From Harmothoe impar (taxonomy: Eukaryota > Annelida > Polychaeta > Phyllodocida > Polynoidae), in contig OX381714.1 in assembly GCA_947462335.1 (NCBI GenBank), forward strand, positions 58,015,800-58,079,799: a stretch of DNA of 64,000 nt, given 5' to 3'. The notes below the pieces were generated by a model. It was not told the DNA's origin, searched no databases, and worked only from the letters and a program-made list of their open reading frames with translations. How positions within the stretch are numbered: the first letter of the stretch is position 1; each line of letters starts with the position of its first letter. Made by a program: the position numbers and the translations under genes. This document shows, piece by piece, positions 18,658-55,448 of this stretch.

Positions 18658-18660
18658 TAA

Positions 18661-21169: not shown

Positions 21170-21315
21170 CCCAGCTAACAATAAAACGTTATTTTACGTC
21201 AAAATAACGTTTTATATTTTACACAACGTTATGTCATAATAAGCCTTAGAAAAACGTTGACATATAACATAATATAACGTTATAAAATGGTGTATAACGT
21301 TATTTGTTCACTGGG
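21170..21315. mobile_element. 146-bp MITE, CCCAGCTAACA ends and AACGTT array
   Basis: Second copy of the family at 10605-10751, with ends CCCAGCTAACA and TGTTCACTGGG and six or more AACGTT palindromes inside. The ends match the consensus CCCAGYDAACA shared with the 13.9-kb element at 41335-55205. Confidence 0.85.
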
Positions 21316-27534: not shown

Positions 27535-27719
27535 ACCGTATTCAACGTAATAAGCGAACATCCCCTAATAAGCGCACACCCCCCGTTTTTGGCGGATTCT
27601 TATACTAGAAATAACCAAATTGATCTCAATTTTTGACCCCAATTAAACTCTCAACTACTAAAAGGTGTCCATAATAATTTTTTAAGCGCACTGTGCGCTT
27701 ATTACGTCGAATACGGTAC
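27535..27719. mobile_element. MITE with CCGTATTCAACGTAATAAGCG ends
   Basis: Ends TACCGTATTCAACGTAATAA and TTATTACGTCGAATACGGTA are inverted and flanked by or include TA. This is the better copy of the family at 2683-2861. No coding content. Confidence 0.8.
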
Positions 27720-30700
27720 TACATTTTTAAAAGTAGGTCTATAGGTCTATACGGAGAACAGGATGAATGGCGAACGGGATAAACAGAAAACGGCAGAACG
27801 GGATAAACGGATTACCGGAGAAGGCGATTACCGTAGAAGGCGATTACCGGTGAAGGCGATTACCAGAGAAGACGATAAAGAGAGAAGGGGATAAAGTGAG
27901 AACGGGATAAACGGAGAATGGGATGAAAGGAGAACGGGATGAAGGGAGAACGGGATGAAGGGAGAACGGGATAAATGGAGAGGGGGCGGGGGGGGGGGGT
28001 CAGGGTGGGGATCTATCTGTAGCACACGAGACTTCTTTTTAAACCCTACTACATTATATGCCTACTACATTTTTAAAAGTAGGTCTATAGGTCTATACGG
28101 AGAACAGGATAAACGGAGAACGGGATAAAGGGATAAACGGAGAAGGCGATTACCGGAGAAGGCGAATACCGGGGAAGGTGATTACTGGAGAGGGCGACAA
28201 ACGGAGAAGGGGATATAGGGAGAACTGGATAAAAGAGAGAACGGGATAAAAGGGAGAACGGGATAAAGGGAGAACGGGATGAAGGGAGAACTGGATAAAG
28301 GGAGAACAGATAAAGGGAGAACGGGATAAACGGAGAACGGGATAAACGGAGAGGGGCAGGGGCGGGGATCAATATTGACGCTCCGATCAACTCGCTTTTC
28401 GGCCGAGACTTCTGGGAACAGAATAAACGGTGAACGGGATAAACGGCGAACGGGATAACCAGAGAAGGCGATTACCAGAGAAGGCTAAAAACGGAGAAGG
28501 GGATAAAGGGAAAACGGGATAAAAGGGAGAACGGGATAAAAGGGAGAACGGGATAAAGGGAGAATGGGATAAAGGGAGAACGGGATAATGGGAGAACGGG
28601 ATAAAGGGAGAACAGGATGAACGGAGAACGGGAGAACAGTATGAAGGGAGAACGGCATAAAGGGAGAACTGGATTAATGGAGAACAGATAAAGGGAGAAT
28701 GGGATAAACGGAGAACGGGATAAACGGAGAGGGGGCGGGGGGGTCAGGGTGGGGGGATCTATCTGTAGCACACGCCGCCCCGTGGCCGACCGACACGGCT
28801 TAACGGAAACGGGGATGCCGTCGATATTGACGCTCCGATCAACTCGCTTTTCGGCCGAGACTTCTTTTTAAACTTTTTAATTTTTTGGTGGGGATACAAA
28901 CACATGGGTCAATATAGGTAATATAGGCCTAGCTATACTAAATATGCCTACTACATTTATACAGAGAACAGGATGAACGGGAACGGGATGAACGGAGAAC
29001 AAGATAAACGGGATAAACGGAAAAGGTGATTACCGACCGACACGGCTAAACAGAAACGAAGATGCTGTCAATATTGACACTCCGATCAACTCGCTTTTCG
29101 GCTGAGAATTTCGGAGAACAGAATAAACGGCGAACGGGATAAACGGCGAACGGGATAAAGGGATAAACAGAGAAGGCGATTACCAGAGAAGGCGATAAAC
29201 GGAGAAGGGGATAAAGGGAAAACGGGATAAAAGGGAGAACGGGATAAAAGGGAGAACGGGATAAAGGGAGAATGGGATAAAGGGAGAAGGGGAGAAAGGG
29301 AGAACAGGATAATAGGGAGAAGGGGATAAAAGGGAGAAGGGGATAAAGGGAGAATGGGATAAAGGGAGAACGGGATAATGGGAGAACTTTAATTTTTTGG
29401 GGGGGATACAAACACATGGGTCAATATAGGTAAAATAGGCCTAGCTATACTAAATATGCCTACTACATTTATACAGAGAACAGGATGAACGGGAACGGGA
29501 TGAACGGAGAACAGGATAAACGGAGAAGGCGATTACCGGAGAAGGGGATAAACGGAGAAGGGGATGAAGGGAGAAGGGGAGAAAGGGAGAACAGGATAAT
29601 AGGGAGAAGGGGATAAAAGGGAGAAGGGGATAAAGGGAGAATGGGATAAAGGGAGAACGGGATAATGGGAGAACGGGAGAATGGGAGAATGGGATAAAGG
29701 TAGAACAGGATGAAAGGAGAACAAGATGAAGGGAGAACGGGATGAAGGGAGAACGGGATACATGGAGAGGGGGCGGGGGGGGGGGTCAGGGTGGGGATCT
29801 ATCTGTAGCACACGAGACTTCTTTTTAAACTTTTTAATTTTTTGGGGGATACAAAAAACAAACACATGGGTCAATATAGGCCTAGCTATACTAAATATGC
29901 CTACTACATTTTTAAAAGTAGGTCTATAGGTCTATACGGAGAACAGGATAAACGGAGAACGGGATAAAGGGATAAACGGAGAAGGCGATTACCGGAGAAG
30001 GCGAATACCGGGGAAGGTGATTACTGGAGAGGGCGACAAACGGAGAAGGGGATATAGGGAGAACAGGATAAAAGAGAGAACGGGATAAAAGGGAGAACGG
30101 GATAAAAGGGAGAACGGGATGAAGGGAGAACGGGATAAATGGAGAACTGGATAAAGGGAGAACAGATAAAGGGAGAACGGGATAAACGGAGAACGGGATA
30201 AACGGAGAGGGGCAGGGGCGGGGGTCAATATTGACGCTCCGATCAACTCGCTTTTCGGCCGAGACTTCTGCGAACAGAATAAACGGCGAACGGGATAAAC
30301 GGCGAACGGGATAACCAGAGAAGGCGATTACCAGAGAAGGCTAAAAACGGAGAAGGGGATAAAGGGAAAACGGGATAAAAGGGAGAACGGGATAAAAGGG
30401 AGAACGGGATAAAGGGAGAATGGGATAAAGGGAGAACGGGATAATGGGAGAACGGGATAAAGGGAGAACAGGATGAACGGAGAACGGGAGAACGGTATGA
30501 AGGGAGAACGGCATAAAGGGAGAACGGGATTAATGGAGAACAGATAAAGGGAGAATGGGATAAACGGAGAACGGGATAAACGGAGAGGGGGCGGGGGGGT
30601 CAGGGTGGGGGGATCTATCTGTAGCACACGCCGCCCCGTGGCCGACCGACACGGCTTAACGGAAACGGAGATGCCGTCGATATTGACGCTCCGATCAACT

Positions 30701-32060
30701 CGCTTTTCGGCCGAGACTTCTTTTTAAACTTTTTAATTTTTTGGTGGGGATACAAACACATGGGTCAATATAGGTAATATAGGCCTAGCTATACTAAATA
30801 TGCCTACTACATTTATACAGAGAACAGGATAAACGGGAATGGGATGAACGGAGAACAAGATAAACGGGATAAACGGAAAAGGTGATTACCGGAGAAGGGG
30901 ATAAACGGAGAAGGGGATAAAGGGAGAAGGGGAGAAAGGGAGAACGGGATGAAGGGAGAACGGGATAAATGGAGAACTGGATAAAGGGAGAACAGATAAA
31001 GGGAGAACGGGATAAAAGGAGAACGGGATAAACGGAGAACGGGATAAACGGAGAGGGGCGGGGGTGGGGGTCAGGGTGGGGATCTATCTGTAGCACATGC
31101 CGCCCCTCGGCCGACCGACACGGCTAAACAGAAACGAAGATGCTGTCAATATTGACACTCCGATCAACTCGCTTTTCGGCTGAGAATTTCGGAGAACAGA
31201 ATAAACGGCGAACGGGATAAACGGCGAAAGGGATAAAGGGATAAACAGAGAAGGCGATTACCAGAGAAGGCGATAAACGGAGAAGGGGATAAAGGGAAAA
31301 CGGGATAAAAGGGAGAACGGGATAAAAGGGAGAACGGGATAAAGGGAGAATGGGATAAAGGGAGAAGGGGAGAAAGGGAGAACAGGATAATAGGGAGAAG
31401 GGGATAAAAGGGAGAAGGGGATAAAGGGAGAATGGGATAAAGGGAGAACGGGATAATGGGAGAACTTTAATTTTTTGGGGGGGATACAAACACATGGGTC
31501 AATATAGGTAAAATAGGCCTAGCTATACTAAATATGCCTACTACATTTATACAGAGAACAGGATGAACGGGAACGGGATGAACGGAGAACAGGATAAACG
31601 GAGAAGGCGATTACCGGAGAAGGGGATAAACGGAGAAGGGGATAAAGGGAGAAGGGGAGAAAGGGAGAACAGGATAATAGGGAGAAGGGGATAAAAGGGA
31701 GAAGGGGATAAAGGGAGAATGGGATAAAGGGAGAACGGGATAATGGGAGAACGGGAGAATGGGATAAAGGTAGAACAGGATGAAAGGAGAACGGGATGAA
31801 GGGAGAACGGGATGAAGGGAGAACGGGATTAAGGGAGAACGGATAAAGGGAAAATGGGATAAAGGGAGATAAGATAAACGGAGAATGGGATAAACGGAGA
31901 ACGAGATAAATGGAGAGGGGGCGGGGTGGTCAGGGTGGGGGGGGATCTATCTGTAGCACACGCTGCCCGCAGCCGACCGACACGGCGAAACAGAAACAGA
32001 GATGCCGTCGCTATTGACACTCCGATCAACTCACTTTTCGGCCGAGACGTAAAACAGCAG
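27720..32060. repeat. ggagaacgggataaa minisatellite with kilobase-scale duplications
   Basis: Some 4.3 kb built mainly of 12-16-bp purine-rich units (ggagaacgggataaa, ggagaaggcgattacc). They are interspersed with recurrent unique blocks such as gatctatctgtagcacac, gccgaccgacacggc and cacatgggtcaatatagg. Large blocks recur: 28398-28960 resembles 30265-30830 (offset about 1.87 kb), and 29040-29760 resembles 31118-31830 (offset about 2.08 kb). The minus-strand frames rich in PFIPFSLYPVLP are translations of the repeat, not genes. Confidence 0.93.
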
Positions 32061-41257: not shown

Positions 41258-41490
41258 GGGAGTGTTCATTTATTAGTTACAGGTGGGGTGGTGGGTTGGG
41301 GGGGGGGGGCGAAAAAATGTCCAACCCCTCCTTACCCAGCAAACACACCTTTACCGGTCCTGTACTGGCCCACACCTGGCAACGGTACTGGGCCAGTACA
41401 GGAGTAGTATAGTATGTATCGGAACGGGACTATAGTTAAGTACTGTTTATTACTCAATCGACATGCAGCCAATCAGAGGCCTCCATTTGA

Positions 41491-41743
41491 CCGGAAGTGA
41501 CGTCACATGCCCATATAAGGGCATACCGGAAGTGACGTCACGTGACCTTGACCTAGTTAGAGGTCAAGGTCATGACTCAGCCAATCAGAGGCTTCCATTT
41601 GACCGGAAGTGACGTCACACGCCCATATAAGGGCATACCGGAAGTGACGTCATGTGACGTCACACGCCCATATAAGGGCATACCGGAAGTGACGTCATGT
41701 GACCTTCACATGTACATATAAGGGCATACCGGAAGTGACGTCA
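41491..41743. promoter_or_regulatory. array of ETS-CRE composite, CArG and CCAAT motifs
   Basis: Six copies of CCGGAAGTGACGTCA (ETS site fused to a cAMP response element) start at 41491, 41526, 41603, 41638, 41682 and 41729. They are interleaved with CCATATAAGG CArG boxes (41511, 41622, 41668) and flanked by CCAAT motifs. Between 41542 and 41572 lies the palindrome TGACCTTGACCT-N6-AGGTCAAGGTCA, which contains nuclear-receptor half sites. These names come from known vertebrate factor motifs; binding is inferred. The array lies in the left subterminal region of the 13.9-kb element. Confidence 0.75.
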
Positions 41744-42157
41744 AGCGACCTTGACTTAGTTAGAGGCTTCTGATTGGCTGGTACACCGGAAGTGACCCAT
41801 TTATGCAAATGAGGGGCCTACTTCTGGTCAAATGGAGACCTCTGATTGGTTGGGTCATGAAGAAATGTGTCTCTTAATTTAATTTTGTTTAGGAAGTGAT
41901 CGATTTTAGGATCACGCGACCGGAAGTGACCTGATGAGTCACGTGACTAGAAGTGACGACGACACATACCTTAATTAGACGATTCAGCAGCGACCGGAGG
42001 AAGTGTCACTTTAAGAGGACACGCTAGTTAATTGTTATATTTGTTTTACTTACTAATAAAAGAAGACGTATGAAAATAAACACAACAATAATTTTATTTT
42101 ATTTTTTTATTTTCTTTTTTTCAATTCTAATAACACTCTATTTTTGAAAAGATGCGC

Positions 42158-42595
42158 TCAATCAATCAATAACACACTTTTTTCATATTTTAAAGGACTC
42201 GTTGTCACACCGTTAGAATGCACGCGACGCTTATAATACAAGTAGCGCACGTCATCTTTCTCTATGGTGTAAGTGGCCATTTTTGGTTCGTACCACTTTT
42301 GAAATTTATATTTACCGCAAGGAGAGTTTTTCGTTTTCGAAAACATTTTAAGAAGACGACTACTTCTGTACACTTTTTTTTGAGATTTTCTTTCACCGGT
42401 GCCGCTGATTTGATCGTAGCAAATGTAAGTCTTAGGGTTGACACTTGGGATCCCGTCACCTTCTCACGCCGCTTTCTTTTCTTTCTGAAGTATGTCTCTC
42501 TCAGGCGAGGTTTGACTACACACAGGCAAACATCAGAGGCACCCAATAGCGCTAATTCTACCTTCAGACAAAGGTCAGGCACGGCTGGCCTATAA
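42158..42595 (-). pseudogene. possible small basic-protein gene in the element's left arm
   Basis: Two overlapping minus-strand frames (42582-42262 and 42373-42158) show protein-like composition. The first is rich in Lys/Arg (TYFRKKRKRREKV), the second Tyr/Lys-rich (DDVRYLYYKRRVH). They could be one protein separated by a frameshift around 42330-42370, or two chance frames. I recognise no domain and see no counterpart in the right arm. Confidence 0.3.
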
Positions 42596-42870
42596 TAGAT
42601 GGGTCAAGGGCTATTCTAGTGAGGGTCAGGCTACGCCGGACATTCAATAAAAAGCTGGAGTTTGGCAAACTTGCTTTTGAAAGTCTGACCATGCGGGATC
42701 CTCATGCCGTAGTCTGGCAATGCTGAACTCTTGGGAGAGTATGCCGGACTCTTGCTGGCCAGACTTTCAAGCAAATTTGCCAAAGTCCAGCTTGTTATTG
42801 AATTTCCGGCGTAGCCCGACCCTCAGTAGAATAGTCCTTGACTCATCTATTATAGGTCAGCAGCGCCTGA
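42583..42870. repeat. about 100-bp inverted repeat (hairpin)
   Basis: ggcctataatagatgggtcaag... at the left is matched by the complement of ...ctattataggtc at the right, over about 100 bp with a loop of roughly 65 bp. One arm of this hairpin recurs in the right half of the element at about 50560-50660. Confidence 0.85.
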
Positions 42871-44295
42871 CCCTTGTATGAGAGTAGTATTGGCGACATT
42901 GGCCGACTCTGATATTTACCCGTGTGTACGGCGGGAGGAGGGGGTTCACAGCTACTGCTTGCGCTTATAGAGCGCTACTAGCGGAGGTCTGGATGAGGAG
43001 ACTACGGTGTTTGTCTTTTGCTTGTGCAGCTGCTGCTGCTGCTGCTGACGATGTCACGGATGCCGCTGACAGATACTGCTGCTTGTGCTGCACGAGACTG
43101 AGTAGCCGCTATTACTAATGCTACTAATACTAGTATGAGAAAATACATTTAGTCAATTGATTAAATCAAGGAGGTTTTCTGACTTCAGTGGATCGTTTAG
43201 CCATCGGCCACGGGCAAAACTTGAAACCATTTTATACATGGGACAATTGGCAGACTCGAAACGTGTTGGTACCATAGGGTCGATCATGTTCATCATCAGT
43301 TCAGGCAAAGGAAGTGTGTCGACAGCACGCGAAAACTTCATGTCTGAATGTTTCAACACAAGACTTTTTATCACACTCACACAGCTGCTTTGAAGAGTGA
43401 ATCCTTGACCAAACTTGTGCTTTTCCAACACAGCTTCGGCCTCTTTCTGTGCAGTAAGGGATCTCTCTTTCGGGTTCATCTCAGTGCTGTCTAGCATGTC
43501 CTCAAAGTCTTTAACATAATGTTCCAACGGACTACAAATGATGGACTCCAGATCATCGTCCGCATATGTCGTCTCCTCGCACCATATTGTGTCTTCGCCT
43601 GTTTCGAATTCCGTCATTTTCTTGACAATCTCCTCCTGAGTGCCTTGCATATATCGAAGCTCCTTCAAGGAGTTGATAACTTGTATGGCGAAGACTGACA
43701 AACTTGAAGGAATTTCACCACAGTCAGGCCAAGTATACGGAGCTAAGAAAAATAACTCTAACAAAATCTTCTCCCTCTGTCCAAATGAAACTACTGTTCC
43801 GATGAAGTTGAAGCATGCTTCTATCCATTGCTCCTTGGTGACGTCCTTCCAATGTTTCTTTACCTCACATGCATCATAGGGCACCGTTTCTCTTCTTGCT
43901 TCAAGTGGGAGTTGCTTTTTCTTTCTTGGACTCATTTCGAGAGGGTTTCGATGCTCTGTAGCGTCAACACTTTCATAAACAAAGAAAATAGCAGAACTAA
44001 CCATCGTAACGTGCTGAGCGAGCGTAGAGTGGACGATGCTACGAAGATGAAGGGCGGGTGGAGAAAGTGTGACTGGTGACAGGGGCGTTTCACTCCTTAT
44101 GTACCCTGTCCTAGATAAGCCTCTTAAACGGCTGAAAAGACTCTCTAAGTACAGAGCTTCTACCGCAGGTGGGTTTAGACTTAAGCAGCTTAGTTCACAC
44201 ACATGTCTGTTAGAAAAAGCTACTTGCACACGCGCCTTCCTTTTTTTTCACTAGTATTCACCCTCTGCCGACTTATAAGACACCTATACACTCTT
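42760..44295. repeat. left arm of the internal inverted duplication
   Basis: Pairs with 48620-50660 in opposite orientation. The shared region runs from near the TATA/5' UTR zone of the unknown gene (ggtgtcttataagtcggc and relatives) through its stop codon and a CAG-rich tail to the gccagcaagag phrase. The right arm is longer because of CAG expansion and a roughly 50-bp extra piece in the 5' leader. Confidence 0.9.
43153..43935 (-). CDS. unknown 260-residue protein, left inverted copy
   Basis: The ATG at 43935 is preferred over the longer open frame because the inverted sister gene shares similarity from this codon on, and both have AAATGAGTCC context. The protein begins MSPRKKKQLPLEARRE and is otherwise mostly helical in composition. 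It has conserved WIEACFNFIG, an acidic stretch near TTYADDD, and a C-terminal CPMYKMVSSFARGRWLNDPL. No signal peptide or membrane segment is seen, and I recognise no family. It is about 89 percent identical to the right copy by eye, with indels only in whole codons. A CTACAG just upstream (complement of ctgtag at about 43957) may be a 3' splice site of a 5' UTR intron. The function is unknown; it may be a structural or regulatory protein of the element. Confidence 0.75.
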   Translation of the reverse strand: MSPRKKKQLPLEARRETVPYDACEVKKHWKDVTKEQWIEACFNFIGTVVSFGQREKILLELFFLAPYTWPDCGEIPSSLSVFAIQVINSLKELRYMQGTQEEIVKKMTEFETGEDTIWCEETTYADDDLESIICSPLEHYVKDFEDMLDSTEMNPKERSLTAQKEAEAVLEKHKFGQGFTLQSSCVSVIKSLVLKHSDMKFSRAVDTLPLPELMMNMIDPMVPTRFESANCPMYKMVSSFARGRWLNDPLKSENLLDLIN

Positions 44296-45246
44296 TCTCG
44301 TGAAATCTATGGAAGATGATGGAAGGACCACTGACTACATTTTCTTTGATCAGAGCGTGGAGGACGGCGTCGAACGGAGGGAACGTTGTGAACACAGCTT
44401 ATAGGTTTTTTGGAAGAGGTCTTGTAAAGTCAAACTGGCGAGAGAGATGGCGTCTTTCAACATGACAATGCTGCTATGTTGGAAAAAAATAGCGTGATTT
44501 TTTCAAAAAGCTTCTATGAAAGATTTGACGTCTTCGTTGTTGTAGTGGATCGAGTAATCTGTCATAGTTTGCTTCTTCTTGTCATACTAAACTTTCTGAC
44601 ATGTGGCGTAGTCGGATTTCGGCCATTTTGACGCCCGTCAGGTCGCTGTCAAAAGTCGATCTCGGTGGCAGGGGTTTTTTGTTTACTAGTTTCTTGGTAT
44701 ACGTCATCCATTCGTAAGTAAAGCAACCTTTCTCTTCGGTTGTAGTGAAAGCTCGCAAATAATTCGCGTAGCTGTAACCAAGTGCTAAAAAAGTTGACTA
44801 CTACGTCAACTATTGATTGCTTCTCTTTATGACGCTGAATTGTTGGTTTCTTCGGTCTCCGGAGGCAAATAACGAGTGAAGGCGTATTTTTTGATCAGGT
44901 TCAAGTCGTAACTCTCCGAGTTGAAGCGTACGACTGGAGCTTGACGGATGTATCTCAGAAGCCGCTTCTTCAGTTGAACTAACGGTTGTCTGGTGTGAGC
45001 TGCAGCGAAGCCGCCTGGAGAAGGGGTGAATGTCGCTTCCTCTAGCAGGAGAGCTTCACCTATCGCTACATGTAACTTCGCTAAGGTTGGTCGGTAAACT
45101 TCTAGCACAGCTTTCTCGATGACTTTGACGTTCTCGTTTATGTGATTTTTAAACTCGGTCTAACAAGGGGTCGGAATCTGCGTCGGATTCTCTGACGTAC
45201 GCTGCCCTTCCTACCCCGGAAAGTCGTATGCGACGCTAGCCGACAT
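44273..45246 (-). pseudogene. frameshifted gene of unknown function in the element's centre
   Basis: Reading the minus strand from an ATG at 45246, protein-like text continues for almost 1 kb but changes frame or hits stops at least five times. Readable stretches include VLEVYRPTLAKLHVAIGEAL and YDLNLIKKYAFTRYLPPE in one frame, then NFFSTWLQLRELFASFHYN in another. The last frame ends in TAA at 44275, inside the boundary of the inverted repeat. I recognise no family. The neighbouring genes are intact, so the damage is local. Sequencing indels could explain part of it. Confidence 0.6.
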
Positions 45247-45524
45247 CGCTGCATAGAGGGCAAAACTTAGGTATCGTTCTTCATTTTTCTACGGGTCACT
45301 CGTGATTGTACGGTCTTTTAAAAATTTTGAAACACTTTTCGCAAACGTCCTGCGGCATGTTTTTCTTTTTTTTGTTTTTTCACTTATTTACCAAATATTA
45401 AAAAAATAAACGTTGTTTATCACTTCGAATACTAGACGCCTCTTACCACACGATGCTATTAGCATAGTGAAAGACGTCTGTAGTGTAGGATCGATTTCAA
45501 CAGATGTCCATCTTACTGCAGGGA

Positions 45525-46602
45525 TCAGACGAGAGTCGTCAACACTGGAGTGTCACAGCTCACTTTTATTTCTTTGGGTACAGCTGCATACAACCCTTGA
45601 ACATACATTGCGACGTCGCCGCGTCCCATGTAGTCTTCCAACACTTTCATCAGAGCCATAGGCTCAGACGTCTCGTTGTACTTCCAAGCTTTCAGCACTT
45701 CATACACAGGGTTCTTCACAGTCCTGTCAGAAGGCACAGGTTGAGAGATGGAAGTTACTTCATGAGAAGTCAACCCTAAGTAGATCCCTATGGTCTTCCA
45801 GTCTCTAGGGCAGAGCTCAGCTAAAAGAGAGAAATATTTCTGCACTTTCCACTCCATGTCTCCACTCTCTAAGCCATCCCACATGTCATGCTTGTCCATG
45901 TACTCACGTGAGAATTTGATGAGGTCCATACGGTAAGATTCTTCCAAGGCGGTGGCTAGGTCCTTCCACCTACTAGTACAACTTTTCTGGTACCAAGTAG
46001 TGAACATTTCTCTAGCTTGAGTTATGACACTTGTCTCACAACTGAGATATCCCATATCCTTCAAGTTCACTTCAAGGAATGAACCTAACCGTATGTAATC
46101 TGATGTCGGCAACTTACCACTTATTTTCAGTAGCATAGCGTCTGACAAGTATCCTAACGGCTCTGCTTTGAAGTATGATGATACAGGTACTACTGCAGCA
46201 GAACCAATAACAGGAGCAGCGTCTGCGCTGGTATCAGACGCCTCGTTGTCGGAACAGGGCAACCACATGACTTCGTAAGGTATTGGTGAGGGCAGGCGCC
46301 ACGGACCGGACGCACTACCAGTGGAAATGAGGTCGAAAAACGGACTGTGCGCCCGTGACCCTTCGGGTTCCTCGTACGCCTCGTCGTCAGCGTCGTTCTC
46401 TGTTTCACCCTGTTGCTTTAGGACATGTATGTCTACTACGCGCTGCTGGGGCTGAGTGTCCGAATAGCTGTAAGTCTCAGCGCGAGCAGCGTTGATGGCG
46501 TCGGTTGATGAAGCGGTGGAGAAGTTCTGTGCAACGTACTGCGTGTCAGTACTAGTAGCGGTAGTCGCAGCAAGAGGTGTAGCAGCAGCAGCAGTAGCAG
46601 GC

Positions 46603-46635
<33 letters not shown>

Positions 46636-47108
46636 GCAGGAGCAAGCGCAGCGCTAGCAAGTGCAGCAGTAGCAGGCGCAGCAGTAGCAGGCACAGCAGC
46701 AGCAGGCACAGCCGCCTCAGCAAGCGCCGCAGTAACAGGCGTGGCAGCAGCAGCAGCAGCAGCAGCAGCAGGCACAGCAGTAACAGGCGCGGCAGCAGCA
46801 ACAGCAGCAGCAGCAGCAGTAGCAGCAGCACTAGCAGCACGAGGATCACTAGCAGCCGCAGCAGGCGCAGCAGTAGCGGCAGCAGTGTGCTCAGCAGCAA
46901 CAACCGTCGCGAGTGTAACAACGTCGCTACTACTGCTGTGTGCGCTCGCTACAGCGGGAGGGTGATAAGACCAAGCGGTTGCGGCGGTAGTCTCAATTTC
47001 AGTAGCAAGAGGAGACGCTGACAGTAAACGATCACCGTTCTGCGTATTCTTCTTGTTCTTGAACTCGATTAGATCCTTGGACGACAGTAGTTGTTGTGTT
47101 TTGCTCAT
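45525..47108 (-). CDS. alanine-rich protein with two death-fold domains
   Basis: ATG at 47108 (context caccaccATGA); the longer frame above it begins at TTG. The 527-residue product has a short polar N-terminus and a roughly 200-residue stretch dominated by Ala runs from GCA repeats. A Ser/Asp/Glu-rich middle follows, then two death-fold segments. The first (about 320-398) has LSDAMLLKISGKLP and a W-KDLATALEE helix. The second (about 420-512) has DWKTIGIYLGLTSHEV and EVLKAWKYNETSE, close to the classical death-domain helices 2-6. Death folds mediate homotypic assembly in apoptosis and innate immunity. A role in blunting or triggering host cell death is inference. A TATATAA box lies about 66 bp upstream of the ATG. 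Confidence 0.8.
46565..46885. repeat. GCA trinucleotide repeat within coding sequence
   Basis: Interrupted (gca)n on the plus strand, coding for polyalanine on the minus strand in the death-domain gene. It produces long spurious frames on both strands. Confidence 0.9.
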
Positions 47109-47134
47109 GGTGGTGCCTGTAGAGAGCAGCAAAA

Positions 47135-47174
47135 GACTGAGTGAGTGAACGGATGTTTCCAGGCCTCTTATATA
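47135..47174 (-). promoter_or_regulatory. TATA box and initiator of the death-domain gene
   Basis: On the minus strand TATATAA (47174-47168) is followed about 36 bp later by TCAGTC (47140-47135), a consensus initiator. The ATG follows at 47108. The leader includes ctctctacag just before the ATG, which might be an acceptor. Confidence 0.6.
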
Positions 47175-47179
47175 CGCCT

Positions 47180-47480
47180 TCTCGCTTCTAGAGCTAAGCT
47201 ACTTACAGCTCTCTTCAGCTGCCCGCCGGCTGACCGGTGACCATTCACAAAGAGAAACAAAAAGTCATAAGGCATGATGTTTTCAGCTGGATCCCTTTCC
47301 CCCTCCCCTTTGAGAGATCGACTGACACGAGCTAAGCTACTTACTGCCTTGTTCAGCAATTCAACGTGCGTTAGCTGTATAAAGGATTAAGCAGTTGCTG
47401 CCGCCAGCTGACCGGCGGACATTCCCAAAGAGAAACAAAAGACATAAGTCATGACGTTTTCAGCTGGATCTCTTTCCCCC
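47180..47480. repeat. tandem duplication of about 200 bp
   Basis: The block gagctaagctactta...ttttcagctggatc...ctttccccc occurs twice, the second copy shifted by about 190 bp and diverged. It lies upstream of the death-domain gene. Confidence 0.7.
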
Positions 47481-47732
47481 CTCCCTCTTTTTTTTTTGAG
47501 AGATGGACTGCCATGAGCGGGCGGTGTACCGACTGTACTAATTCAACGCGCATTAGCTGTATAAAGGATTAAGCAGTCATGAGCTTAGAGTGTGTATACA
47601 AAAAAACTACAGGAGGCGTGTAGTGTGAAGCAGGACCCCCTAAGACGGGAGTGTCTGTCTGTGAGTAGAGTCGTGTGCATGTGGTGAGCGACTTAAGTGT
47701 AAAACAAAAAAAAATCACCGCCTCCTGCCGTG

Positions 47733-48294
47733 GTGAGTAGACTGGCCGGCGGCGGCTGGCTAGTTCAATAGGGGTGACAGCTGACTAAGGCTGTGCATGA
47801 AAATCCGATTTTCACCTGACCTCTGACGTTTGTTACAATGAATGCCAAAGGGGGAGAGAGTTGTCCTCAGGTAGGGGGTAGGAGGTAAGGCTAATGGATA
47901 AGGAAAAAAAAACACCATTTTCAGCTGGCCACCACAGATGGCGATGACATACCCCTCGGCATCTAAGCTCTTAAGAAGCTCTTACGGAGCGGAGCGGCTG
48001 CTGGACAGCTGGGGTGAGTAGACTGGCCAGCGGCGGCTAGCTAGTTCAATAGGAGTGACAGCTGACTAAGGCTGTGCATGAAAATCAGATTTTCACCTGA
48101 CCTCTGACGTTTGTTACAATGAATGCTAAAGGGGGAGAGAGTCGTCCTCAGGTAGGGGGTAGGAGGTAAGGCTAATGGATAAAGAAAAAACACCATTTTC
48201 AGCTGGCCACCAAAGATGATGATGACACGCTCCTCGTCATCTAAGCTCTTAAGAAGCTCTTACGGAGCGGAGCGGCTGCTGGACAGCTGGGGTG
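47733..48294. repeat. two-copy tandem repeat, about 281-bp period
   Basis: gtgagtagactggcc...ggacagctgggg occurs twice (starts 47733 and 48014) with about 90 percent similarity. Both copies contain the phrase atgaaaatc(c/a)gattttcacctgacc. No coding frame. Confidence 0.85.
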
Positions 48295-48592
48295 CTGTTG
48301 GAAATAGGATTAAACTCCCTCTGTATAAAAGCTCTGATTTCTGTTGGAAAAAAACCATAGCACCTTTGACCACAGTAACGTCTACTACCACCACCACCAG
48401 CACCACCGTCGCTGCCACCGCCGCCGCCGCCGCCAGTCACAGCTGATCACCTCATTAAAAGCATGTGACGTCGTCGCTTCTAGTCACTTGCTTCATCAAG
48501 TCGCTTCCAGGCACGTGATCTTAAAGACCCTCACTTCTTAAACAAAAAAAACGAAGAGACACACTTCTTCCTCTCGAGAGGAAGAATGACGT

Positions 48593-48600
48593 ATATAAGG
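48593..48600 (+). promoter_or_regulatory. TATA-like box upstream of the right gene copy
   Basis: tatataag at about 48593 precedes the inverted-repeat leader of the plus-strand gene at 48984. In the left copy the corresponding position reads differently, so the right copy may have acquired or kept its own promoter outside the duplicated region. Confidence 0.45.
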
Positions 48601-48983
48601 AGGCTGACACGTGTATAGGTGCCTTATTAGTCGGCAAGGGGTAAATACTAGTGAAAAAGGAAGACAGGTGTGCAGGTAGCTTTCTAACAGACACGTGTGT
48701 GCACTAAGCTGCTTAAGTCTAAACCCCCCTGCAGTAGTCAAGTAGCATGTGAAAACTTACTTAACAGATCACTTAATTGAGTAGAGACTCTGTACTGAGA
48801 GAGTCTTTTCAGCTGTTTAAGAGGATTATCTAGGACAGGGTACATAAGGAGTGAAACGCTGCTCTCATTCATCGTAGCATCGTCCACTCCACGCTCGCTC
48901 AGCATGTTATGAGGGTTATTTCTACCTTTACAGCTTCTTTTCTTATCGAAGTGTCGACGCTACAGAGCATCGAAACTCTCCAA

Positions 48984-49766
48984 ATGAGTCCAAGAAAGAA
49001 AAAGCAACTCCCACTAGAAGCAAGAAGAGAAACAGTGCCCTATGATGCATGTGAGGTAAAGAAACATTGGAAGGACGTCACCAAGGAGCAATGGATAGAA
49101 GCATGCTTCAACTTCATCGGAACGGAAGTAGTTTCATTTGGACAGAGGGAGAAAATTTTGTTGGAGCTATTTTTCTTAGCTCCGTATAGTTGGCGTGACT
49201 GTAGTGGTGAAATTCCTTCAGGTTTTTCAGCGTTCGGCATACAAGTTATCTGGTCTTTGAAGAAGCTTCGATATATGCAACGCACTCACGAGGAGATTGT
49301 TCAGAAAATGACGGAATTCGAAACAAAAGAAGTATGGTGCGAGGAGACGACATATGCGGACGATGATCTGGAGTACATCATTTGTAGCCCGTTGGAACAT
49401 TATGTTAAAGACTTTGAGGACATGCTAGCCAGCACTGCGATGACCGCGAAAGAGAGATCCCTTACTGCACAGAAGGAGGCCAAAGCTGTGTTGGAAAAGC
49501 TCAAGTTTGGTCAAGGATTCACTCTTCAAAGCAGCTGTGTGAGTGTGATAAAAAGTGTTGTGTTGAAACATCCGGACATGAAGTTTTCGCGGGCTGTCGA
49601 CACACTTCCTTTGCCTGAACTGATGATGAACATGATCGACCCCGTCGTACCAACATGTTTCGACTCTGCCAATTGTCCCATGTATAAAATGGTTTCAAGT
49701 TTTGCCTGTGGCCGATGGCTAAACGATCCACTGAAGTCAGAAAACCTCCTTGATTTAGTCGACTGA
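48984..49766 (+). CDS. unknown 260-residue protein, right inverted copy
   Basis: Same family and identical length (260 residues) as 43153-43935, in opposite orientation. By eye about 28 substitutions separate the two. There are three codon-sized indel sites, whose gains and losses cancel. The conserved ends are MSPRKKKQLPLEARRE and WLNDPLKSENLLDL. An upstream CTACAG (about 48959-48964) may be a splice acceptor. No known domain. The open frame and balanced indels argue that both copies were under protein-level constraint after duplication. Confidence 0.75.
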   Translation: MSPRKKKQLPLEARRETVPYDACEVKKHWKDVTKEQWIEACFNFIGTEVVSFGQREKILLELFFLAPYSWRDCSGEIPSGFSAFGIQVIWSLKKLRYMQRTHEEIVQKMTEFETKEVWCEETTYADDDLEYIICSPLEHYVKDFEDMLASTAMTAKERSLTAQKEAKAVLEKLKFGQGFTLQSSCVSVIKSVVLKHPDMKFSRAVDTLPLPELMMNMIDPVVPTCFDSANCPMYKMVSSFACGRWLNDPLKSENLLDLVD

Positions 49767-49824
49767 CTAAATGTATTTTCTCATACTAGTATTAGTAGCA
49801 TTAGTAATAGCGGCTACTCGGTCT

Positions 49825-50190
49825 CGTGCAGCACAAGCAGCAGCATCTGTCAGCAGCAGCTGCTGCAGCAGCAGCACGATCAGCACAAGCAGCAGCTGCT
49901 GCAGCAGCTGCACAAGCAGCACAAGCAGCAGCATCTGTCAGCAGCATCCGTGACATCGTCAGCAGCGGCAGCAGCAGCAGCAGCAGCAGCTGCACGAGTA
50001 GCACAAGCAGCAGCATCTGTCAACAGCATCCGTGACATCGTCAGCAACTGCAGCAGCTGCACGAGCAGTACAAGCAGCAGCAGCTGTCAGCAGCTGCAGC
50101 AGCTGCACGAGCAGCACAAGCAGCAGCACCGACAGCAGCAGCAACAGCAAATCAGCAGCAGCAACAGCAGCAGCAGCGGCAATGTGGACC
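49825..50190. repeat. expanded CAG/GCA-rich tandem region
   Basis: About 365 bp of cagcag with a recurrent agcatctgtcagcagcatcc module. The matching left-arm tract (about 43026-43100) is roughly 75 bp. Frames on both strands (poly-Ala, poly-Ser, poly-Leu) are repeat artefacts. Confidence 0.9.
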
Positions 50191-50194
50191 GCTA

Positions 50195-50350
50195 AATTCG
50201 AGATGGTGACATATCTGTTTCTTAGAATCGACATTCGACATGAGGTCTAGTGACATTTGACATGAAGCTTGAAAAACATAGTGACAGGTGACATGAGCAA
50301 TTCTTAAAATCGACATGAGATATGAGCATAATTAAGCGACATCGACATGC
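50195..50350. repeat. gacatg-type dispersed repeat
   Basis: aattcgagatggtgacat..., ttaaaatcgacatgagat phrases match the family at 4070-4210 and 5635-5770. It is absent from the left arm, so it inserted after the duplication. Confidence 0.65.
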
Positions 50351-50660
50351 GCCATGGCTATTTTTTATTTTTTTTGAAGACAACCGCCATAGCTTCCTTA
50401 TCCAGACCTCCACTAGTAGCGCTCTATAAGCGCAAGCTTTGCCTTAAGAGAGCTGTGGCTGTGAACCCTCTCCTCTCTCCGTACACACAGGTAAATATCA
50501 GAGTCAGCCAATGTCGCCAATACTACTCTCATACAAGGGTCAGGCGCTGCTAGACTATAATAAATGGGTCAAGGACTGTTCTACTGAGGGTCAGGCTAGG
50601 CCGGACATTCAATAACGGGCTGGACTTTGGCAAATTTGCTTGAAAGTCTAGCCAGCAAGA

Positions 50661-50955
50661 GATGCACATCATCATAAACGCGATCATGATACCTTTCATT
50701 GTAAGTAGACTCGCCTCTCTGCCCTCTCTTTTAGAGAGGGCAGAGAAGCGAGTCTCACTCTTAAAAAACCCTGCCCCTCTCCCCCTCCCCCCCTCCCCCC
50801 CCATGCATCTTAAAGAGTGCCCCCCAGAGTGCCCCTCTCCCCCCCTCCTAGAAAAAAAGAGCCGTATTTTTAAATTATTTTTTAGCAAGCTTTTTCAGCT
50901 TGCTTTTTTTTTCTTTTTTTAAATTTATTTATCCATCAAAATCTCAAGTGACTTA
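50661..50955. other. right-arm sequence with gagagggcag hairpin
   Basis: actcgcctctctgccctctc at about 50709 is followed by gagagggcagagaagcgagt at about 50734, making a near-perfect 20-bp stem with a short loop. C-rich and A/T-rich runs follow. No gene. Confidence 0.6.
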
Positions 50956-51360
50956 TTTTGAAAGTTCAAGTTCAAGTTCAAATTGTGTTTATTGTTCACC
51001 GAGACATAAGTACAATCACTAACAAGAATGATCTCCCTTCATAATCGGTCTCGGGAGGTAAGCTATGGCGTACAGAGTTATGACCTCTTCTTTATAGGCA
51101 GATGCCGCGATCTAATACACACATTCAATATGATAATACTGAGTACGCCCCTAACAGTCAAAGGAAAGGATAATCTAATAACAACAGTGTACAGTGGGTG
51201 GGTAAGCTTACTATGAGACAGAGCAGGATACTTGGCGGGACACGTCAGATAGGTCTGGTTGCTTTACAGAACAGGGGATATTATCCCAGGGATAAGTATG
51301 CAAGTTATAAGTTATAAGTATGCAAGTTATCATTCATAACACTCAGAAGATGCAGCATAT
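50956..51360 (-). other. 3' region of the LINE with ttcaag tail
   Basis: AT-rich untranslated region ending, on the plus strand, at the (ttcaag)n array at 50961-50980, which is probably the microsatellite tail of the retrotransposon. Confidence 0.6.
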
Positions 51361-53631
51361 TTAGAGTTGGACACCAAGGGGTCTTACAGGATCAGAGATA
51401 ATACATTTATTTGTGTGAATTAGTTGGAGGTTGTCTGATCTCCAGTTGCGTTGGAAATATGAAAAGAGTCTGTGTTTAATTTGAGCCTTGAAGGCGTCTT
51501 TGTTGGTAACCCATCTTAAAGCAGGATCTATATCGTTCCACTGTGACTGGGCTTGATAGACCGGATCTCTTAGTAATGCAGCACTTTTGGGGATGGTTCT
51601 ATACATAGCAGGAGCCTCAGTTGTCCTAGTACCCGAGTATGGTCTTATTTTAACCTTACCATTATATACAAGTCTATGACACATGGTTAGTTGTAAATAA
51701 ATACGTCTCAGATCAATAGGAAGCATTTTTACATTAGTATACAAAGTAGATAGAGCAGTATTACATCTAGTACGTTGCATTCGATTGTCTAAATAGCTCG
51801 AGAACCATGCTATAGTGTCTTCACATAATCCTAAAGGCCTAAGCTTCCTAAGTAACAGAGAATGGTCTAGTGAATCAAAAGCCTTTTTGAAGTCGAGATA
51901 TACGATACCGGTATGTTTATGGAATGTTTGAGCAATATGGACGGAGTTCATAACTTGAAAAACAGTGTCTTGTGTAGAGTGACCTTCCCTAAAACCGTTC
52001 TGGCTAGAAGTTAGAAAATTATTAATTTCTAGGTAGGGATACAGTTGAGAATGGACAAATCTTTCTAGCATTTTCCCTGGTAAAGGGAGGAGGGAGATAG
52101 GCCTCAATTCTGAGGGGGAGGTGGGATTTTGAACTTTGGGGATAGGGATAACAGTTGCCAGTTTCCACTTATCAGGGAAGACATTCTTAACAATAGATAA
52201 ATTGACTAGGTGTGTAAATTGAACCCGTAATATACTTAATGATTCCTTCAATAGTTTTGCTGGAATATCTGGAATTCCTGAGGACTTGTAAACATCAATC
52301 TTGCTTATTTCAGACACCACTTCCTGGGGGGAAATTATGTGAAGGGAGAATTTGTCCCTAATCATGGGGGGGATAAGTTCATCTTGATAGGGGATTTTAG
52401 GGAGGTCTGACGCTAGTTTCTCTCCAATTTCGGAGAAGAACTTATTGATTACTTCAGCTGAGTCCTCAGGGGTCATAGGGGTACCATCAGGGTCCAAAAG
52501 GGACAACCATTTACCGGCCTTTTTCTTTGGCAATACCTGGGCGACCTTCTCCCAGAACTTTTTGGGATTATCTCGATATTTTACCAACTGAGCTCTAACA
52601 TATTCTCCTTTAGCTCTGCGGGTTGCCCCGTTCGCCAGGTTCCTGTAGGCCTTAGCCCTATTTCTGTCAACATCAAGCTTAGTCCTCCTGGCAATTTTAA
52701 ACATATTATCACGGTCTTTGTAAAGAACAAGCAGCTCAGGGGTAAGCCAAAGGGGCCTGTTTTTTCTTATCTTAAATGTTTTCTCAGGGTGTAGCTTATT
52801 CACCATATCTTTTATAACACCCTCCATATAGTTCCAAGCTTGATTAACATCTTGTAAAGCTGTGAATTCAGCCCAGTTACCCTTTGCCAGTTCCTCTTCA
52901 ATTTTGACTCTATCCCAGTTTAAATAGGATCTACCGGTAAACATTTCTTTTTCTGTGGGATTTCTAGGCTTTTTTATTAAAATGTAAGTCGGAACGTGAT
53001 CAGAAATATTAATATTAATGGTGCCTGAAGCTGCTACAATGCTACAATCTGAGAAAATTTGGTCCAATACATGAGTAGGGTGGTAGAACGGGCGGGTGGG
53101 CTCGTCTATGTAAGATGTAAAAAGGTGAGTCTTACAAACACGGTCCATAACAGTGGCGCTAAGGGCAGTGCTGGATAGGTGAATATTAAAATCGCCCCCT
53201 ACAGTAATAGAACAGTTTTTGTATAGCATTTTAGCTTGGGCAATAGCGGTCATCAAATGTTCAACAAATTGAGCTTCATGAACCCCGGGGGGTCTGTATA
53301 TGTTAAAGATGAATTCAGGCACACAACCTTTTCTAATAAGTTTTATACCCATAAGCTCACAGTCGTCGTTCATGACATTAAAAACTGGTTCCTTAAGTCT
53401 AACATGGGCGACCTTTTCTAGGACATACATGCATATGCCGCCGCGGTCTTTATGAGTCCTATCTAGTCTATGGAGAGAATAGCCGTCAACGCCATAGTCA
53501 ATGTCATGGTTACGGTCTTTAAGCCATGTTTCAGAAATAGAGAGGACTTCAGGTGTTCTGTCATAACAAAAGAAGCGAGTTGCCTCGATTCTACCAACAA
53601 GACTTCTCAAATTCCAGAAAACCAAAAGCAT
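51361..53631 (-). CDS. LINE ORF2 with intact endonuclease and a reverse transcriptase lacking its catalytic centre
   Basis: A 756-codon open frame. The N-terminal part is an APE-type endonuclease: VFWNLRSL, ISETWLKDRN, YRPPG, GGDFNIHLSS and the terminal SDHVP. A linker follows, then RT fingers and the first palm motif (ELRPISLLPLPGKMLERFV, YLDFKKAFDSLDH). Directly after RMQRTRCN the frame jumps to the far C-terminal region (LRRIYLQL, SQWNDIDPALRW). The GxPQGS and YADD blocks are absent, apparently by an in-frame deletion of roughly 200 codons at about 51745-51770. The element ends in a ttcaag repeat near 50960. It lies in the right arm of the 13.9-kb element. It cannot copy itself as it stands. 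Confidence 0.9.
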   Translation of the reverse strand: MLLVFWNLRSLVGRIEATRFFCYDRTPEVLSISETWLKDRNHDIDYGVDGYSLHRLDRTHKDRGGICMYVLEKVAHVRLKEPVFNVMNDDCELMGIKLIRKGCVPEFIFNIYRPPGVHEAQFVEHLMTAIAQAKMLYKNCSITVGGDFNIHLSSTALSATVMDRVCKTHLFTSYIDEPTRPFYHPTHVLDQIFSDCSIVAASGTININISDHVPTYILIKKPRNPTEKEMFTGRSYLNWDRVKIEEELAKGNWAEFTALQDVNQAWNYMEGVIKDMVNKLHPEKTFKIRKNRPLWLTPELLVLYKDRDNMFKIARRTKLDVDRNRAKAYRNLANGATRRAKGEYVRAQLVKYRDNPKKFWEKVAQVLPKKKAGKWLSLLDPDGTPMTPEDSAEVINKFFSEIGEKLASDLPKIPYQDELIPPMIRDKFSLHIISPQEVVSEISKIDVYKSSGIPDIPAKLLKESLSILRVQFTHLVNLSIVKNVFPDKWKLATVIPIPKVQNPTSPSELRPISLLPLPGKMLERFVHSQLYPYLEINNFLTSSQNGFREGHSTQDTVFQVMNSVHIAQTFHKHTGIVYLDFKKAFDSLDHSLLLRKLRPLGLCEDTIAWFSSYLDNRMQRTRCNTALSTLYTNVKMLPIDLRRIYLQLTMCHRLVYNGKVKIRPYSGTRTTEAPAMYRTIPKSAALLRDPVYQAQSQWNDIDPALRWVTNKDAFKAQIKHRLFSYFQRNWRSDNLQLIHTNKCIISDPVRPLGVQL

Positions 53632-54050
53632 GCCCTTCTCCCTTTTATTATGACCCGTGATGTATGTTTACATTTACCGGTACCCAAACACTACCATAAA
53701 CGCGGCCCGGCCATCTCTCCAAACCCTGACTCCTTTCAACCACTAACCACATCACCAGACGACTGTTCAAATTAATAATTGTACATATTAACAGTGTGAA
53801 ATGCTTCAATACGATTAGCCCAAATCGAGGGGCTTTCCAATAGGTAGTACAGCGGTGTGGACTAATCTGGCAGAGGGGGGTGGGTGGCGTGGGGACAGGG
53901 TGGGGAGCCCTGAGGTGTACAAGGGATGTACAAGTATCTAGTTAGGTATAATTATGTAATGTGACAGGGACACAGTGTAAGTTAGACAGTATTTTAGTAG
54001 CTATAAGTAGTTATAGCAAAGTCAGTTTTTAAACCATGGTCATTTAAGTG
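53632..54050. other. LINE 5' end and element right arm, no gene
   Basis: The LINE 5' boundary is somewhere between about 53650 and 53850. I see no target duplication that fixes it. No ORF1 is evident. Confidence 0.4.
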
Positions 54051-54069
54051 TGTTTAACTGTGAAGCCAA

Positions 54070-54330
54070 CCTAGTAGTCACGTGACCCCCTTAAGTAGGT
54101 CACTTCCCGTCACGTGACCTATTTGAATTTCCCGCCAACATGGTGGTCACGTGACCCTCTTAAGTAGGTCACTTCCGGTCACGTGACCTATTTGAATTTC
54201 CCGCCCAAAGGTCACGTGACCGGAAGTAGGTCACTTCCGGTCACGTGACCTATTTGAATTTCCCGCCAAAAGGGAGGCCTCTCATTGGCTGCTTTTGAAT
54301 TTCCCGCCAAAAGGGAGGCCTCTGATTGGC
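54070..54330. promoter_or_regulatory. tandem E-box/ETS motif array, right subterminal
   Basis: About three units of gtcacgtgacc...acttccggtcacgtgacctatttgaatttcccgcc. The GTCACGTGAC core is the symmetrical E-box bound by USF/MITF/TFEB-type factors, and ACTTCCGG is an ETS site. The unit differs from the left array (CRE/CArG), although both use CCGGAAGT. Function inferred from motifs only. Confidence 0.65.
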
Positions 54331-54384
54331 TGCAGGTCGATTGAGTAATAAACAGTACTTAACTATAGTCCCGTTCCGATACAT

Positions 54385-54550
54385 ACAATACTACTTACAG
54401 GCAATCGGTACTGGACCAGTACTGGGGTGCAAATGGCACCAGTACCGTGCCAGTACAGTATGCCAGTACTGACATGGTACAGGGCCAGCATCGGACCAGT
54501 ACTGGACCAATGCTGGCATTTCGGTACTGGGCCGGTACCGGACCGGTTAC
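54385..54550. repeat. GGTACTGG palindrome array (inner)
   Basis: Repeated ccagtactgg, ggtaccgg and gtgccagtac phrases. A second stretch lies at 54960-55200 and a short left counterpart at 41350-41405. They are arrays of short palindromes near the CCCAG ends, reminiscent of AACGTT arrays in the 147-bp MITEs. Confidence 0.8.
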
Positions 54551-54559
54551 TGAGCGCTG

Positions 54560-54955
54560 TTTAAAGTATAACGTAGAGTCAAAAGCATAAGTAATCTGTT
54601 ACAAAATTAACATTATATTGTACCTATTGTGCTTCAAGGCCTGAAGACTTAGGTAATCAGTCATCATGGTGCAACAACCAGCTACAGTTTATAGCCAGAA
54701 GTGTAGCATACCAGTTTTTGGCAGAGATAACACACCTTGCAGGTCTTATAGTTGTGTAATAACCAAGCAAAAGGTGTTTGCAAAGACATGCCCTTTGTTC
54801 TCCCATTGTTTATCACATTTAATGTAAAAGTTTGTATTCCATAAGATTTCACAGGAAATTTGTTTCAGGCTAAACTATTTAAAACTATTTTGAAGACTCT
54901 GAGGGTCATAATTATAGAGATATCATATGCAACTAAACCCTCAATATCATAAAAC
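54560..54955. other. unique sequence between palindrome arrays
   Basis: No gene, repeat or motif recognised. Confidence 0.4.
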
Positions 54956-54959
54956 ATGC

Positions 54960-55200
54960 ACCGGTGACATCTGGTGGATTCTTTGAAAACTACTGTGCCG
55001 GTACTGGCATGTTGGTAGTGGCATGCCGGTACTGGGCCAGTACCGGCATACCCTTACTGAAATGTCGATACTATGCCGGCACAGTGCCAGTACAACCAAG
55101 CTTAAATGGCATTATAATGGCTCTGTACTGGCAGTACTGGCCCGGTAGTGCCGGTACTTGCCTGTACAATGACGGTACTGGCCCGGTACAGGTGTGTTTA
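54960..55200. repeat. GGTACTGG palindrome array (terminal)
   Basis: Dense ggtactgg/ccagtacc text running into the right CCCAG end. The plus-strand frame here is repeat-derived. Confidence 0.8.
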
Positions 55201-55448
55201 CTGGGTAGGGGTTGGTGTACAAAATTCTGATCCCTCTTGAGGGGGGGGGGCGTAAAAAATTTAGCCTCTTTTTAGCAAAAAAGCCAGCGAGTTACTATAG
55301 TTCAAAGGGGGGCGGGCGAAAAAATGTTGGCGCCTTCGGCCAGGGGGGGGCACGAAACGTTCCACGCGCTCTCGAGGGGGAGGGCGCAAAATATTTTCGC
55401 CCCTCCGCGAAATCTCACCCTTGTAATTAATAAATGAACACTCCCTAA

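What the first reader, a model, noticed from the sequence alone, without database searches (positions are those of the whole stretch)
41335..55205. A 13.9-kb inverted-repeat element with cargo genes and no recognised transposase
The ends CCCAGCAAACACACC and GGTGTGTTTACTGGG are inverted, with further inverted blocks inside. The interior carries an inverted pair of intact genes, a death-domain gene, a broken gene and regulatory arrays, and no known mobilisation gene. No described superfamily that I can name combines these. It could be a new cargo-bearing transposon, or an integrated large DNA virus fragment whose genome had inverted repeats around a unique region.
Basis: partly seen in the sequence, partly recalled or inferred. 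Interest (0 to 1): 0.9.

Follow-up and report, generated by a model that had tools for sequence, protein, structure and literature searches.

The report
Amplified gene-carrying satellite of Maverick transposons
Inside the reported stretch lies a roughly 10-kb mobile element that has the ends of a virus-like Maverick transposon but no recognised movement gene, carries three intact genes including a cell-death-domain gene, and is present in dozens of nearly identical copies, probably over a thousand, in this animal-like genome.

Summary
The CCCAG ends are real but are not the ends of the cargo element. They belong to a short TA-flanked repeat, itself inside a MITE, into which the cargo element jumped. 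The element is window 41403-54395: it starts AGTAGT, ends ACTACT, has 86-bp terminal inverted repeats and a perfect 6-bp target duplication. A 3.1-kb LINE is private to this copy; the native unit is about 9.9 kb. In 6 of 6 copies read at both ends (window included) the 6-bp duplication is perfect; over 5.8 kb they differ by 0.10-0.52%. Genome searches gave 2,206 first-look candidates for the left end (40 scored, 40 matched at 99-100%) and 147 of 147 scored copies of gene A intact.

Such ends and duplications are the published signature of Mavericks, yet no integrase, ATPase, protease or capsid gene was found; a broken stretch resembles a Maverick-type polymerase. The unit keeps an inverted gene pair of an undescribed family and a tandem death-domain gene. 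A Maverick in the same genome with integrase, polymerase, ATPase and protease carries a homologous death-domain gene. Best reading: a non-autonomous, gene-bearing Maverick satellite mobilised in trans. The helper's ends were not resolved, so trans-mobilisation is inferred.

The parts
41403..54395 (.). whole gene-bearing element in this copy (native part 41403-50964 plus 54063-54395, about 9.9 kb)
   Evidence: boundaries shared with genome copies
41397..41402 (.). left copy of the 6-bp target duplication TACAGG
54396..54401 (.). right copy of the 6-bp target duplication TACAGG
41403..41488 (+). left terminal inverted repeat, begins AGTAGT
   Evidence: 86 bp, 96.5% to the right end
54310..54395 (-). 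right terminal inverted repeat, ends ACTACT
41466..42000 (.). left subterminal array of repeated promoter-type motifs (CRE, ETS, CArG, E-box, AGGTCA)
   Evidence: motif counts against 200 first-order Markov sequences; 45-bp tandem repeat
54065..54330 (.). right subterminal array (E-box, ETS, E2F-type, AGGTCA motifs)
   Evidence: 69-bp tandem repeat
43153..43935 (-). gene A, 260 aa, family without Pfam match
   Evidence: 14 protein relatives; 147 of 147 scored genome copies without a stop
48984..49766 (+). gene A', inverted second copy of A, 260 aa from the same start (285 aa from an upstream ATG)
   Evidence: open in 4 of 5 other copies read whole, cut by the fetch boundary in the fifth
42749..44291 (.). 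left inner inverted arm holding A (with gaps)
48611..50661 (.). right inner inverted arm holding A' (with gaps)
45525..47108 (-). tandem death-domain gene, 527 aa, alanine-rich N-terminal half
   Evidence: Pfam Death E 1.2e-10, two stretches; open in 5 of 5 other copies, 522-527 aa
44353..45366 (-). broken gene, resembles the exonuclease part of a protein-primed DNA polymerase with a zinc-finger-like start
   Evidence: weak: motif order on a Maverick polymerase; no Pfam or BLAST match
48592..48599 (+). TATA box TATATAAG upstream of A'
   Evidence: read
47167..47174 (-). TATA box TATATAAG upstream of the death-domain gene
   Evidence: read
50965..54062 (-). LINE insertion private to this copy (endonuclease and reverse transcriptase ORF 51361-53631)
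   Evidence: Pfam RVT_1 E 2.4e-15; absent in 5 of 5 other copies
41335..41402 (.). left part of the host CCCAG repeat (TA duplication at 41333-41334)
54402..55205 (.). right part of the host CCCAG repeat (TA duplication at 55206-55207)
41258..41334 (.). left part of the outer GGGAGTG MITE
55208..55445 (.). right part of the outer GGGAGTG MITE

Best explanation
The element is a non-autonomous satellite of Maverick/Polinton elements. Shown: its ends, its 6-bp target duplications, its many near-identical copies, its three open genes and the absence of a recognised integrase, ATPase or protease among its ORFs. Inferred: the integrase (and probably the protein-primed polymerase) of full Mavericks in the same nucleus recognises its AGTAGT/ACTACT ends, copies it as linear DNA and inserts it with a 6-bp stagger. 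Inferred: it spread so well because it kept genes of its own; the tandem death-domain protein would act as a decoy or adaptor in host death-domain signalling and keep the cell alive or responsive while the element replicates, and the A/A' pair of unknown biochemistry serves replication or expression. Inferred: the subterminal motif arrays recruit proliferation- and stress-linked host factors to drive these genes or to aid replication. The inner palindrome carrying A and A' arose before the burst of amplification.
For: Ends (AGT)2//(ACT)2 and perfect 6-bp duplications in 6 of 6 copies read at both ends; PMC8097293 (passages seen) gives exactly these as the commonest end motif and duplication of intact vertebrate Mavericks. 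40 of 40 scored left ends at 99-100%, out of 2,206 first-look candidates; 147 of 147 scored A copies without a stop, out of 2,574 candidates; 15 pairs of 6 copies differ by 0.10-0.52% over 5.8 kb. Death-domain ORF and A open in 5 of 5 other copies. Broken gene broken in the same way in nearly all of 25 loci looked at, so amplification took place without it. A Maverick in the same genome has polymerase, integrase over cut-off and ATPase at cut-off, protease over cut-off, and a tandem death-domain gene (Pfam 50.8 bits) alignable with the element's (27% over 183 aa, E 7e-18 for one comparison). PolB genes of many copies are open in this genome (26 of 28 of the best family without a stop), so helpers may be alive.
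Against: No helper with the same tips was found: the ends of the one Maverick looked at were not resolved and tips or element were not found beside the other polymerase loci in hand. The polymerase relic is weak: no Pfam match, no BLAST match, shuffled pieces scored better than the real ones in one test, and the PF03175 genome search did not list it. The selection signal between A and A' is modest (dN/dS about 0.5 by NG86, 0.74 by YN00). Gene A could not be folded with confidence (mean pLDDT 41 and 47). Copy number above the 40 and 147 scored is an extrapolation.
Confidence: 0.82

Rival explanations
1. It is a satellite virus: besides being integrated in trans, its linear DNA is packaged into the capsids of a helper Maverick/adintovirus and passes between cells or hosts.
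For: Maverick ends, virus-like compact genes with TATATAAG boxes close upstream, death-domain gene shared with a Maverick that has an adenain-like protease and a packaging-type ATPase; gene A relatives at 38-89% identity in other data sets.
Against: No packaging signal, virion or extrachromosomal DNA could be looked for; no relative was found in viral contigs; vertical burst amplification alone explains the copies.
Confidence: 0.22
2. It is autonomous in a new way: gene A, duplicated in inverted orientation, encodes an unknown recombinase that acts on Maverick-like ends.
For: A is the best conserved and duplicated gene, has no known fold assigned and 14 relatives.
Against: No Pfam, PHROG or PDB match of note; the alignment shows no acidic triad spaced like a DDE enzyme that I could recognise; 6-bp duplications and AGT ends are what a Maverick integrase makes.
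Confidence: 0.08
3. The copies arose by segmental duplication or assembly artefact of one decayed endogenous virus.
For: Copies are nearly identical.
Against: Each of 6 copies has its own flank and its own 6-bp duplication, and private insertions (LINE in the window, another repeat in the copy at C12:68.97 Mb).
Confidence: 0.02
4. One reading: a 13.9-kb cargo transposon whose own ends are CCCAG.
For: The CCCAG pair is a true insertion with a TA duplication.
Against: 39 of 39 other scored left ends stop at 41403.
Confidence: 0.02

Closest known systems
Maverick/Polinton elements (Polintoviruses, adintoviruses)
   Same: (AGT)2//(ACT)2 ends, terminal inverted repeats, perfect 6-bp target duplications (PMC8097293, passages); a possible polymerase relic; accessory-type genes
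   Different: 9.9 kb instead of 15-25 kb (PMC6431247 section 10); no integrase, ATPase, protease or capsid gene recognised; inverted gene pair in an inner palindrome; very high copy number at 99.5% or more
The Maverick at C3:73.504-73.525 Mb of the same genome
   Same: tandem death-domain gene, 27% identical over 183 aa
   Different: has PF03175 polymerase, PF00665 integrase, Pox_A32-type ATPase and Peptidase_C5 protease; no gene A seen in the stretches read; ends unresolved
Ginger DNA transposons
   Same: integrase-type mobilisation of a TIR element in invertebrates
   Different: Ginger has 4-5-bp duplications and TGT ends (PMC2836005, passages)
Host CCCAG repeat (Tc1/mariner-like in its TA duplication only)
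   Different: about 0.87 kb without the insert, no coding capacity tested, unrelated to the cargo

Membership tests
Maverick/Polinton | 5'-(AGT)2//(ACT)2-3' end motif | tested here: met
   AGTAGT at 41403, ACTACT at 54390-54395; same left tip in 7 of 7 other left ends read and at both ends of 5 other copies
Maverick/Polinton | perfect 6-bp target site duplication | tested here: met
   6 of 6 copies: TACAGG, TATAGG, CACAAG, CACAGT, CACAGT, TACATA
Maverick/Polinton | terminal inverted repeats | tested here: met
   86 bp, 96.5%
Maverick/Polinton | retrovirus-like integrase | tested here: not met
   no rve match among the element's longer ORFs given to Pfam; the LINE ORF is the only known enzyme found
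[quoted passage not shown]
   relic 44353-45366: motif order fits but no significant match
Maverick/Polinton | packaging ATPase and adenain-like protease | tested here: not met
   no match among ORFs given to Pfam
Maverick/Polinton | jelly-roll capsid proteins | tested here: inconclusive
   no capsid match in Pfam or PHROGs, but divergent capsid proteins could be missed and no confident fold was obtained
Non-autonomous derivative of Maverick | helper element with the same ends in the same genome | tested here: inconclusive
   one Maverick read in pieces, ends not found
Tc1/mariner (for the host CCCAG repeat) | TA duplication | tested here: met
   but the two look-alike repeats at 10605-10751 and 21170-21315 are flanked by AA/AA and AT/TT
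Tc1/mariner (for the host CCCAG repeat) | DDE/D transposase | not tested
   no autonomous copy of the CCCAG repeat was sought

The most novel reading that the evidence does not exclude
A satellite virus of animals: a 10-kb gene-bearing parasite of Maverick/adintovirus-type viruses that uses the helper's integrase, polymerase and capsid, carries its own death-signalling gene shared with its helper, and has colonised its host genome in over a thousand near-identical copies.
Probability: 0.22. Interest if true: 0.9.

Novelty: new variant of a known kind. Interest (0 to 1): 0.7.

Why it matters
Mavericks are regarded as virus-like elements whose full forms encode their own replication and integration. 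A gene-rich satellite with their ends, amplified within the recent past (copies 0.1-0.5% apart), would show that Mavericks are parasitised in trans and that the parasites keep cell-death genes. It offers a direct test of whether Maverick machinery is active now, and of why death-domain genes travel on mobile DNA.

Tried and rejected
Rejected: CCCAG as the element's ends. Rejected: segmental duplication (different 6-bp duplications). Rejected: chance inverted ends.

Led nowhere: literature search for the CCCAG tip (two unrelated primer papers in the listing) and for death-domain cargo transposons (none); viral-contig scans with gene A and a relic piece, none; prokaryote genome contigs with gene A, none; phage tblastn with gene A, none; Rfam, none; degenerate DNA patterns for the relic in viral contigs: 1 locus, 8 loci and 0 loci, and the 9 loci held no relative of the relic. 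Structure predictions of gene A were too poor to use for a fold search (mean pLDDT 41 and 47). The relic pieces had no Pfam match, only chance-level PHROG matches and no PDB match; against six longer polymerases of the genome nothing stood out, and shuffled pieces did better than the real ones.
Full report
The CCCAG ends exist and are the only such pair in the window. Joining their flanks with a single TA gives a sequence that aligns across the junction with two relatives of the flanking MITE, 6394-6701 and 18332-18662, so both ends belong to one insertion. Two small repeats in the window have similar tips (10605-10751 and 21170-21315), with flanks AA/AA and AT/TT rather than TA/TA.

What is inside. 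The window lies in an unnamed 1.51-Gb genome. A search with the first 601 bases of the reported element found 40 of 40 scored places at 99-100%, out of 2,206 first-look candidates, but the 39 others start only at query position 57-69. The 7 other left ends that I read begin AGTAGT at window 41403 and have unrelated flanks. The right end mirrors it at 54395, with 86 bp of inverted repeat at 96.5%. The window copy is flanked by TACAGG on both sides. Five further copies read at both ends have their own perfect 6-bp duplications: TATAGG, CACAGT, CACAGT, TACATA and CACAAG. Those five lack the stretch 50965-54062, which in the window holds a LINE with a reverse transcriptase. The native element is 9.9 kb; one of the five carries another private insert of about 1.35 kb.

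How many and how old. The scored samples are 40 left ends and 147 copies of gene A, from 2,206 and 2,574 candidates. The candidates are a loose first look, and gene A occurs twice per element, so I put the number at about one to two thousand, as an estimate. Among six copies, 15 pairwise differences over 5.8 kb run from 0.10 to 0.52%. Of 20 loci around gene A, one being the window itself, 18 align over their whole 3.8 kb and 2 over part, at 99.5-100%.

Genes. Gene A (43153-43935, minus) and A' (48984-49766, plus) lie in inner inverted arms. They differ in 40 of 258 aligned codons with only in-frame indels, dN 0.054 and dS 0.109 by NG86, 0.060 and 0.080 by YN00, a modest sign of selection. Protein searches found 9 and then 14 relatives at 38-89% identity, unnamed and without Pfam domains; two of them, P0007 and P0008, sit on a contig of the same length, 91,410 bp, presumably the same one, so another genome seems to hold a pair too. 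In this genome 147 of 147 scored A copies have no stop. The third gene (45525-47108, minus) has two death domains at its C-terminal end and is open in 5 of 5 other copies, at 522-527 aa. Its only relative found, P0010, shares the middle part (44% over 137 aa) but ends in a PC4-like domain that stays below the Pfam cut-off (20.6 against 25 bits).

The broken gene. 44353-45366 (minus) is broken, and broken alike in most of 25 loci looked at, the window's own among them: the first piece has the same open length in 24, the second in 24, the third in 21 and the fourth in 22. To my eye it resembles the exonuclease part of a protein-primed DNA polymerase. The test is mixed. On a polymerase of this genome (L049) the best gapped alignment of piece 2 falls in the exonuclease region, with 2 of 200 shuffles as good. 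The other three pieces are not above shuffles (70, 35 and 90 of 200) and align elsewhere. Without gaps, and with segments chosen after the fact, piece 1 ranks first of 1,151 offsets, piece 2 third of 1,141 and piece 3 fifth of 1,154 at collinear places; piece 4 does not fall into place. Pfam, BLAST and the PF03175 genome search do not report it, and shuffled pieces beat the real ones in one test. I give about 0.7 to a polymerase relic.

Control regions. The left array has 7 palindromic CRE sites, 8 ETS cores and 3 CArG boxes; the right array has 6 GTCACGTGAC palindromes and 4 E2F-type sites. Most of these are absent or nearly so from 200 first-order Markov sequences; CCAAT is not in excess beyond them, and CACGTG on the left reaches 4 hits where one random sequence reached 6 (palindromes are counted twice there). 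A 143-bp stretch at the left (41859-42000) recurs inverted upstream of A' (48430-48570) at 78%, which ties the ends to the interior.

What it is. PMC8097293 (passages seen) gives (AGT)2//(ACT)2 as the commonest ends of intact vertebrate Mavericks, with perfect 6-bp duplications. This element meets both, but has no integrase, ATPase or protease among the ORFs given to Pfam, and is shorter than the 15-25 kb quoted in PMC6431247 (section 10). It therefore looks like a non-autonomous, gene-bearing derivative. Potential helpers exist: PF03175 matched 129 places from 83 scored candidates of 695, including 28 of one family of which 26 have no stop inside. One of these, on C3, lies beside an integrase (36.7 bits, cut-off 32.6) and a Pox_A32-type ATPase (22.8, exactly at the cut-off), an adenain-like protease (22.7, cut-off 21.3) and a tandem death-domain gene (50.8 bits) that aligns with the element's own (27% over 183 aa). 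Its ends were not found, so a shared tip is untested. No tip or element match was found beside the other polymerase loci in hand, but those stretches were short.

Novelty. I found no paper on gene-bearing non-autonomous Mavericks in the listings; many journals are not held, so this is weak. The element is a new variant of a known kind. The boldest reading not excluded is a packaged satellite virus of Mavericks.

Noticed in passing
G000:C3:73.504-73.525 Mb (L049, L064, L066, L067, L068): A Maverick with polymerase, integrase, ATPase and protease that also carries a tandem death-domain gene, a DUF5662 gene (84.1 bits) and a gene with a SOCS-box-like stretch just below cut-off.
   Followed up: partly
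G000, 83 scored PF03175 places: Several distinct families of long open polymerase genes (about 1,130-1,190 aa and about 1,400-1,570 aa) in one genome; the upstream part of one (L065) begins with zinc-finger-like motifs.
   Followed up: partly
window 10605-10751 and 21170-21315: Two MITE-like repeats with CCCAG tips and AACGTT arrays, similar in tip to the repeat hosting the element.
   Followed up: partly
P0010: A protein sharing the middle of the death-domain gene but ending in a PC4-like domain: possible C-terminal domain swapping in this gene family.
   Followed up: no
window 50205-50365 and L066:5131-5290: A 161-bp stretch of the element is 85% identical to DNA near the C3 Maverick; whether this is shared repeat or shared element sequence is open.
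   Followed up: no
window 47732-48294: Two 285-bp direct repeats at 94% identity between the death-domain gene and gene A'.
   Followed up: no
window 49828-50181 and 46581-46885: CAG/GCA-rich arrays, one downstream of A' and one coding the alanine-rich part of the death-domain gene; their length differs between copies.
   Followed up: no
window 27717-32048: Long array of 16-bp repeats with large internal duplications.
   Followed up: no
window 13813-15436 and 16407-17306: A LINE-like reverse-transcriptase reading frame in two pieces and an ORF that looks by eye like a seven-helix receptor; not searched.
   Followed up: no
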